Program-made: the position numbers and the translations under genes
Assembly (NCBI GenBank): GCA_016234485.1
Contig: JACRBL010000046.1
Span: 104,820-168,819, forward strand
DNA from: Chloroflexota bacterium
GTDB taxonomy: Bacteria > Chloroflexota > Anaerolineae > Anaerolineales > Villigracilaceae
Direction: 5' to 3'
Length of the DNA: 64,000 nucleotides
Part shown: in pieces, positions 57,026 through 57,874 of the stretch
Layout: every line of letters begins with the position of its first letter
Position numbering within the stretch: the first letter of the stretch is position 1
The notes under the pieces: model-generated
What the model was told of the DNA's origin: nothing
The model's input: the letters and a program-made list of their open reading frames with translations, nothing else
The model's database searches: none

Positions 57026-57032
57026 TTTTTCA

Positions 57033-57063
57033 GACTTCCGAAGTCTCAGAGACTTCGGAAGTC
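57033..57063. repeat. Palindrome P3, upstream flank of RAYT
   Basis: GACTTCCGAAGTC-TCAGA-GACTTCGGAAGTC. Confidence 0.92.
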
Positions 57064-57301
57064 TTCCCCCTACCCCCCACGGAGAACCCATGCCCCGCCG
57101 AATCATTCCCTTTCTCCCTGATCAGTATTATCACTTCTATAATCGCGGCAACAATCGCCAGGTGGTATTCTTCGAGCGCGATAACTATTTGTACTTCCTG
57201 AAAGGCGTACAAAAATATCTCGTCCCATATATGGATGTGCTGGTCTACACGTTAATGCCAACGCATTACCATGTTTTGGGAAGGGTGCGCCAAGGCGCTA
57301 A

Positions 57302-57332
57302 GACCTCGGAGTTCTTAAAGAACTCCGAGGTC
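57302..57332. repeat. Palindrome variant P4a inside RAYT CDS
   Basis: GACCTCGGAGTTCTT-AA-AGAACTCCGAGGTC. Confidence 0.88.
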
Positions 57333-57343
57333 TCAGCCAGCCA

Positions 57344-57374
57344 GACTTCGGAAGTCTCCGAGACTTCCGAAGTC
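57344..57374. repeat. Palindrome P4b inside RAYT CDS (arms swapped)
   Basis: GACTTCGGAAGTC-TCCGA-GACTTCCGAAGTC. Confidence 0.9.
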
Positions 57375-57774
57375 TTGACATCCTCCAAACAAGTCTCTCT
57401 TGCCATGCAAAAGTTCGGCATATCCTACACCAAAGCCATCAACAAACGCTTTGACCGCGTAGGCGCATTATTTCAGGGTCAGTTTCAAGCCAAACCAATT
57501 CAAAGTTATGAGCATCTGCTGAACCTGTGCGTTTATATTCATGGCAACCCTGTAAAAGATGGGCTGGTGTCCCTGCCTGAAAATTGGGAATATTCCAACT
57601 ATCTCGAATGGATGGGGTTACGCAAAGGCTCTCTTGTTCATCGTGACTTCATCGAGCAAAATTTTGGCTCTTCGGAAGAGTACAAACGATTGATCACGAA
57701 ATACATCCAAACCCGTTATCTTCCAGACGATTTTCGAAAATATATTCAAACGCTGGAGGGGTAGCCCCAAGACA

Positions 57775-57805
57775 GACTTCCGAAGTCTCCGAGACTTCGG
57801 AAGTC
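57775..57805. repeat. Palindrome P5, downstream flank of RAYT
   Basis: GACTTCCGAAGTC-TCCGA-GACTTCGGAAGTC. Confidence 0.92.
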
Positions 57806-57874
57806 TTGGTTTTGCAACTTTTTCCATATACTTCTGTATTGCCTATTGACACCATCTTCATAGGACAGACCCCC

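What the first reader, a model, noticed from the sequence alone, without database searches (positions are those of the whole stretch)
57031..57806. RAYT-type transposase flanked by and interrupted in frame by its own palindromes
SEEN: a Y1/HUH-like gene (57090-57764) has composite palindromes GACTTCCGAAGTC-N5-GACTTCGGAAGTC 27 nt upstream of its ATG and 10 nt after its stop. A same-family palindrome with swapped arms, plus a variant (GACCTCGGAGTTC..GAACTCCGAGGTC), lies inside the gene, in frame, adding about 30 codons (KTSEFLKNSEVSASQTSEVSETSEVLTSSK) between the HxH motif and the SYTKAIN tyrosine region. KNOWN: RAYTs act on REP/BIME palindromes, normally flanking the gene. INFERENCE: the enzyme may target or be regulated through its own coding sequence, with copies tolerated because they encode a stop-free flexible loop.
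Basis: partly seen in the sequence, partly recalled or inferred. Interest (0 to 1): 0.85.

Follow-up and report, generated by a model that had tools for sequence, protein, structure and literature searches.

The report
Transposase gene carrying its own target
A bacterial repeat-moving enzyme carries, in frame inside its own gene, copies of the DNA hairpin it probably acts on, and the enzyme part next to them changes in step with the hairpin sequence, suggesting that target and reader can be swapped together.

Summary
In detail: a RAYT (REP-associated HUH transposase) gene, 57090-57764, has 33-nt palindromes just before it, just after it, and twice inside it in frame. This gene is not a special case: 118 of 119 parsed close homologues carry the same kind of palindrome-coding loop. 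In related loci the in-gene hairpin is kept at DNA level beyond what the peptide needs, with compensatory changes, and resembles each gene's own flanking hairpins. In-frame REPs inside RAYT genes are already reported (Quentin 2018, subclass 2.4), so this is a variant of a known kind; here the GTAG foot and subclass motifs are absent. The same palindrome sits in frame in at least ten other genes of this genome, nearly always read as TSEVxxTSEV. New here: residues 107 and 111, at the start of the DNA-binding helix just after the loop, covary with a base pair of the flanking hairpins (32 of 34 loci; Pagel p = 1.3e-5; no other protein column comes close). Protein pairs about 94% identical elsewhere differ as a block in loop plus helix start. 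Best reading: an in-gene target plus recognition-helix cassette. Binding, cleavage and regulation were not tested.

The parts
57032..57064 (.). Upstream REP-like hairpin, TTC[CG]GAA flavour, 25 nt before the ATG
57090..57764 (+). RAYT / TnpAREP-like HUH Y1 transposase gene, 224 aa
   Evidence: NF047646 1.4e-13, 51 bits, below the 80-bit cut-off; top fold hit 4ER8
57264..57272 (+). HUH motif H59-Y60-H61
   Evidence: sequence; invariant H59 and H61
57301..57333 (.). In-gene hairpin 1, CTCGGAG flavour, encodes TSEFLKNSEV; probably the older copy, shared at peptide level with P0003
57343..57375 (.). In-gene hairpin 2, TTCGGAA flavour like the flanks and the 23 genome copies, encodes TSEVSETSEV; absent from P0003
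57408..57422 (+). Codons 107-111 (Q-K-F-G-I) at the start of helix aC; residues 107 and 111 covary with REP flavour
57534..57536 (+). Catalytic tyrosine Y149 in YIHGNP
   Evidence: motif; aligns with the YIYINPVK region of 4ER8
57774..57806 (.). Downstream REP-like hairpin, TTC[CG]GAA flavour, 9 nt after the stop
56239..56269 (.). Further copy of the same REP, 16 nt after the stop of the upstream gene
38329..38359 (.). Further copy between two minus-strand genes (aminotransferase-like and alanine dehydrogenase-like)

Best explanation
This is a REP-transposase unit of Anaerolineae. A Y1 HUH protein (RAYT) acts on, and spreads, 33-nt hairpins that flank its gene and are scattered through the genome. 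The hairpin can be read through, and copies persist in frame in genes, mostly in the frame that gives TSEVxxTSEV. In this clade copies repeatedly settle in one disordered loop of the RAYT itself, directly before helix aC, the helix thought to read the hairpin. Loop hairpin and helix start behave as one cassette: when it is exchanged, probably by recombination between RAYT genes, residues 107 and 111 and the in-gene hairpin change flavour together, and the flanking REPs follow. In the window a second, T-flavour hairpin and a T-type helix (Q107, I111) sit behind an older C-flavour hairpin, which looks like the trace of such a switch. Shown: hairpins, position, frame, DNA-level constraint, likeness of in-gene and flanking copies, helix-REP covariation, block difference in proteins. 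Inferred: hairpin binding by aC, self-insertion, recombination as the route. Unknown: any regulatory use.
For: 118 of 119 parsed homologues carry SE-type peptides in this loop. Peptide-preserving codon shuffles: observed arms mostly 14-26 nt against a mean near 5; in 25 of 37 loops no shuffle of 1000 reached the observed arm, in the rest 1-12 did. In-gene hairpins: 7 of 15 pairs with changes on both sides, none on one side only. In-gene arms resemble own upstream arms (mismatch 0.152 against 0.291 permuted, 0 of 5000) and downstream arms (0.205 against 0.272, 0 of 5000). Residues 107/111 against flank flavour: M/V 16 C and 1 T; Q,K,R/I 16 T and 1 C; Fisher 2.5e-7, next best column 7e-4. Pagel LR 27.9, p = 1.3e-5; 0 of 1500 simulations. 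In-gene hairpin nearest the helix: M 12 of 12 C; Q/K/R 13 T, 0 C, 1 other. 347 protein pairs at least 85% identical elsewhere but of different type: 4.29 differences in the 7-aa block against 0.13 in same-type pairs. Fold hit 4ER8; its helix a3 contacts REP through K82 (PMC8266576).
Against: No binding or cleavage data. Only 5 phylogenetically independent contrasts lie on well supported branches (none opposite), so the sign test alone cannot reach 0.05. Exceptions: L039 (M, upstream flank T), L046 (M, downstream flank T), L065 (Q, upstream flank C). Block exchange is seen in proteins; donor, breakpoints and flanks of the closest pairs could not be read as DNA. The K119-K82 match rests on a weak profile alignment (E 0.04). 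The model of the window protein has modest confidence (mean pLDDT 69). Dispersed copies of other genomes only lean towards the predicted flavour (partial listing).
Confidence: 0.6

Rival explanations
1. Passive hitch-hiking: REPs land often near their own RAYT gene, only insertions in the permissive loop survive, and nothing selects for them. Loop and helix differ as a block because they are adjacent and inherited together; the helix residues do not read the REP.
For: Four of the 23 genome copies, plus in-gene hairpin 1, lie within 1.6 kb around the gene. The same palindromes occur in variable loops of unrelated genes. The loop is predicted disordered. Some relatives have lost half or all of it (L061, L064).
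Against: The helix residues covary with flanking hairpins hundreds of bases away, after correction for the tree, while no other column of the protein does so nearly as well.
Confidence: 0.22
2. Selected regulatory site: the in-gene hairpin is an operator, ssDNA or mRNA hairpin through which the RAYT represses or limits its own expression.
For: Strong in-gene hairpins kept at DNA level beyond the peptide; similar to flanking copies.
Against: The hairpin is missing or decayed in several apparently intact relatives (L054, L058, L061, L064, L067, L068), and the same palindromes occur in unrelated genes. No expression data.
Confidence: 0.13
3. A native peptide domain: TSEV repeats are selected as protein and the palindrome is a by-product.
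For: The peptide is found in nearly all close homologues and the TSEV frame is preferred in other genes.
Against: Codon resampling with the peptide fixed almost never gives such palindromes; other peptides with perfect hairpins fill the same loop in distant RAYTs (L017, L019, L029); the region is predicted disordered.
Confidence: 0.05

Closest known systems
TnpAREP subclass 2.4 (RAYT group 4), Quentin et al. 2018, PMC6006769
   Same: REPs flank the gene and are also inserted within it, in frame, between HuH and Y; variable insertion between b3 and aC.
   Different: No GT[AG]G foot at the hairpins; motifs THYH, LFQ and YIHGNP instead of NH[IFV]H, WQ and YIxNNP; Anaerolineae; that paper's text, as read here, gives no link between in-gene REP, flanking REPs and helix residues.
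E. coli TnpAREP (4ER8) and its REP
   Same: Fold, HUH and single tyrosine, REP hairpins flanking the gene and dispersed.
   Different: E. coli REP has GTAG and a bulged stem; here near-perfect double palindromes without GTAG, and a long loop after HUH.
Intragenic REPs and Rickettsia palindromic elements (PMC3733652)
   Same: Palindromic repeats inserted in frame in unrelated genes.
   Different: Here the matching transposase gene itself carries them and covaries with them.

Membership tests
RAYT / TnpAREP | HUH motif, single catalytic Y, Y1 fold | tested here: met
   H59-x-H61, Y149; 4ER8 best fold hit E 9.7e-6; NF047646 1.4e-13, below its curated cut-off
RAYT / TnpAREP | Gene flanked by two palindromes that are repeated in the genome | tested here: met
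RAYT / TnpAREP | Cleaves REP single-stranded DNA | not testable with these tools
   needs purified protein
Canonical REP | GTAG or GTGG tetranucleotide at the foot of the hairpin | tested here: not met
   3 left and 4 right feet of 146 hairpins within 7 nt
TnpAREP subclass 2.4 | REP inserted in frame in the gene between HuH and Y | tested here: met
TnpAREP subclass 2.4 | Motifs NH[IFV]H, WQ, YIxNNP | tested here: not met
   THYH, FQ, YIHGNP; NHFH relatives with in-gene hairpins form a separate branch
TnpAREP subclass 2.4 | 8-aa insertion at the end of aB | not tested
   reference sequences were not at hand
Rickettsia palindromic elements | In-frame insertion in unrelated genes | tested here: met
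Rickettsia palindromic elements | Sequence relation to RPE families | not tested
   no RPE sequences were compared

The most novel reading that the evidence does not exclude
The RAYT gene holds a swappable specificity cassette: an in-gene copy of the target hairpin joined to the first turns of the helix that reads it, so that recombination changes reader and target together and retargets the enzyme in one step. Residues 107 and 111 form a simple recognition code (M/V for a C:G pair, Q,K,R/I for a T:A pair).
Probability: 0.35. Interest if true: 0.85.

Novelty: new variant of a known kind. Interest (0 to 1): 0.7.

Why it matters
How RAYTs recognise their REPs is known in detail for only a few proteins, and how new REP families arise together with new RAYTs is open. 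The covariation gives a concrete, cheap test: two residues against one base pair. If the cassette reading holds, it explains how a hairpin-reading HUH enzyme can change its target without losing its partner sequences, and it shows a repeat that can enter genes without breaking them.

Tried and rejected
Uniqueness of this gene: rejected, nearly all close homologues have the loop. Peptide-only constraint: rejected by codon resampling. GTAG-footed REP: rejected. Close relatives on plasmids: none, at most 29% identity; on viral contigs: none. Two further genome searches gave no extra independent loci for the covariation test. Clean empty sites: in two other genes the palindrome sits in loops that vary between relatives in sequence and length; in one the length is unchanged, so a simple insertion of 33 nt is not shown.

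Full report
What is there. The gene 57090-57764 encodes a 224-aa protein with H59-x-H61 and Y149 in YIHGNP. It matches the NCBIfam model for REP-associated tyrosine transposases with E 1.4e-13, though below its curated cut-off, and its predicted fold is closest to 4ER8, the RAYT bound to a REP hairpin. Four 33-nt palindromes belong to it: one upstream, two inside, one downstream. Each consists of two near-palindromic 15-mers and folds as one 15-bp hairpin. The genome holds 23 such composite copies; four of them, plus in-gene hairpin 1, lie within 1.6 kb here.

The in-gene copies are a trait of the clade. Of 119 homologues that could be parsed among the best 120, 118 carry SE-type peptides (TSEV, TSEF, NSEV and the like) in the loop between HUH and the next helix, and almost none elsewhere. 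DNA of about 40 related genes, mostly from Anaerolineae, shows the usual plan: a hairpin mostly 10-30 nt before the ATG, a hairpin in the loop, a hairpin mostly 3-30 nt after the stop. Across the wider RAYT set, 36 hairpins fall in the loop and 6 elsewhere in the gene. More distant relatives have an 18-20 aa loop without a hairpin, while a separate NHFH branch has in-gene hairpins of quite different sequence.

The palindrome is constrained as DNA. With the peptide fixed and codons redrawn from the gene's own usage, arms as long as those observed are almost never reached. In 21 different in-gene hairpins, 7 of 15 pairs changed on both sides (40 cells) and none on one side only; slid controls give at most 6 such cells. 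These sequences were picked as hairpins, so the percentage paired is biased, but double changes instead of single ones are what pairing predicts. In-gene arms resemble their own flanks more than those of other genes; that test alone is not corrected for kinship.

The palindrome is not confined to the RAYT. In this genome copies lie in frame in lipoprotein-like genes (L108, L112, L114), a URO-D family protein (L109), a TIR-type protein (L110), an AMP-dependent synthetase (L116), two DNA methylases of restriction systems (L113, L119) and two further ORFs (L123, L124), all as TSEVxxTSEV, and in a DUF255 protein in another frame (L122); a related palindrome lies in a CO-dehydrogenase flavoprotein subunit (L111). 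Names without a Pfam match (L108, L110, L112, L114, L116, L123, L124) are my reading of the sequence. For the synthetase and the DUF255 protein, relatives without the palindrome have other sequence in the same variable loop.

The new point. The flanking hairpins come in two main flavours, TTC[CG]GAA (T) and CTC[CG]GAG (C). Among all protein columns, residues 107 and 111 stand out: M107/V111 with C flanks, Q, K or R107/I111 with T flanks, 32 of 34 loci, Fisher 2.5e-7, next column 7e-4. On a tree built without the loop and these residues the trait changed at least 9 times; in 5 supported independent contrasts the flavour goes the same way or does not differ, never the opposite way. A Pagel test gives p = 1.3e-5 and none of 1500 simulations reaches the observed match. 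These residues lie at the start of helix aC (91-121). The DNA-binding helix a3 of E. coli TnpAREP contacts REP through K82 (PMC8266576), which aligns weakly with K119 here; 107, 111, 115 and 119 are spaced by four, hence on one helix face by geometry.

Cassette. Proteins up to 95% identical elsewhere differ as a block in loop and helix start. The window (P0001) and P0003 are 94.2% identical outside it, but P0003 has only the TSEFLKNSEV-type hairpin peptide and AMMRLGV, while the window has that peptide plus TSEVSETSEV and AMQKFGI. Loop type follows helix type: TSEV type 73 with Q; SEF type 23 with M and 2 with Q; mixed 5 with Q and 2 with M. The in-gene hairpin nearest the helix matches the helix in all 25 loci that can be scored. 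I infer block exchange; the DNA of the closest pairs was not available.

What is known. In-frame REP insertions inside tnpAREP genes between HuH and Y were described for subclass 2.4 (PMC6006769), and intragenic REPs in other genes (PMC3733652). The present unit works like these, but lacks the GTAG foot and the subclass motifs, so I do not file it as a member. In the papers searched I found no report of the helix-REP covariation; the library is partial.

Limits. Mostly metagenome-assembled genomes; 34 loci; a few exceptions; no biochemical data. Dispersed copies in six other genomes lean the predicted way (by my count of the listed sites: C flavour prevails in M-type genomes, T flavour in Q-type), but the listing is partial.

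Noticed in passing
window 54653-56222: Mrr-type restriction endonuclease gene overlapping a gene with DUF559 / MTES_1575 nuclease-like matches, directly upstream.
   Followed up: no
window 56470-56550: Short imperfect repeats of the type aaaacctaggttagctttt, unrelated to the REP.
   Followed up: no
window 57806-60031: Long ORF (741 aa), possibly secreted, with no Pfam match.
   Followed up: no
L139, L142 and L138: At the loop of the AMP-dependent synthetase where this genome has the REP, two congeners carry a different short repeat (CAGTCATCAGTGATCAGT-like): one loop, different repeats.
   Followed up: partly
L006 / L127 (G000 contig C32): Second RAYT of the same genome, flanked by an unrelated palindrome (GTGACAGTCAC type) and without any in-gene palindrome.
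   Followed up: partly
genome G128: 684 copies of AGACTTCSGAAGTCT in one relative, far more than in any other of 250 genomes.
   Followed up: no
L039 loop: In-gene hairpin with 26-bp arms, longer than all others.
   Followed up: no
L058: Upstream hairpin apparently lies in an extended reading frame of the RAYT.
   Followed up: no
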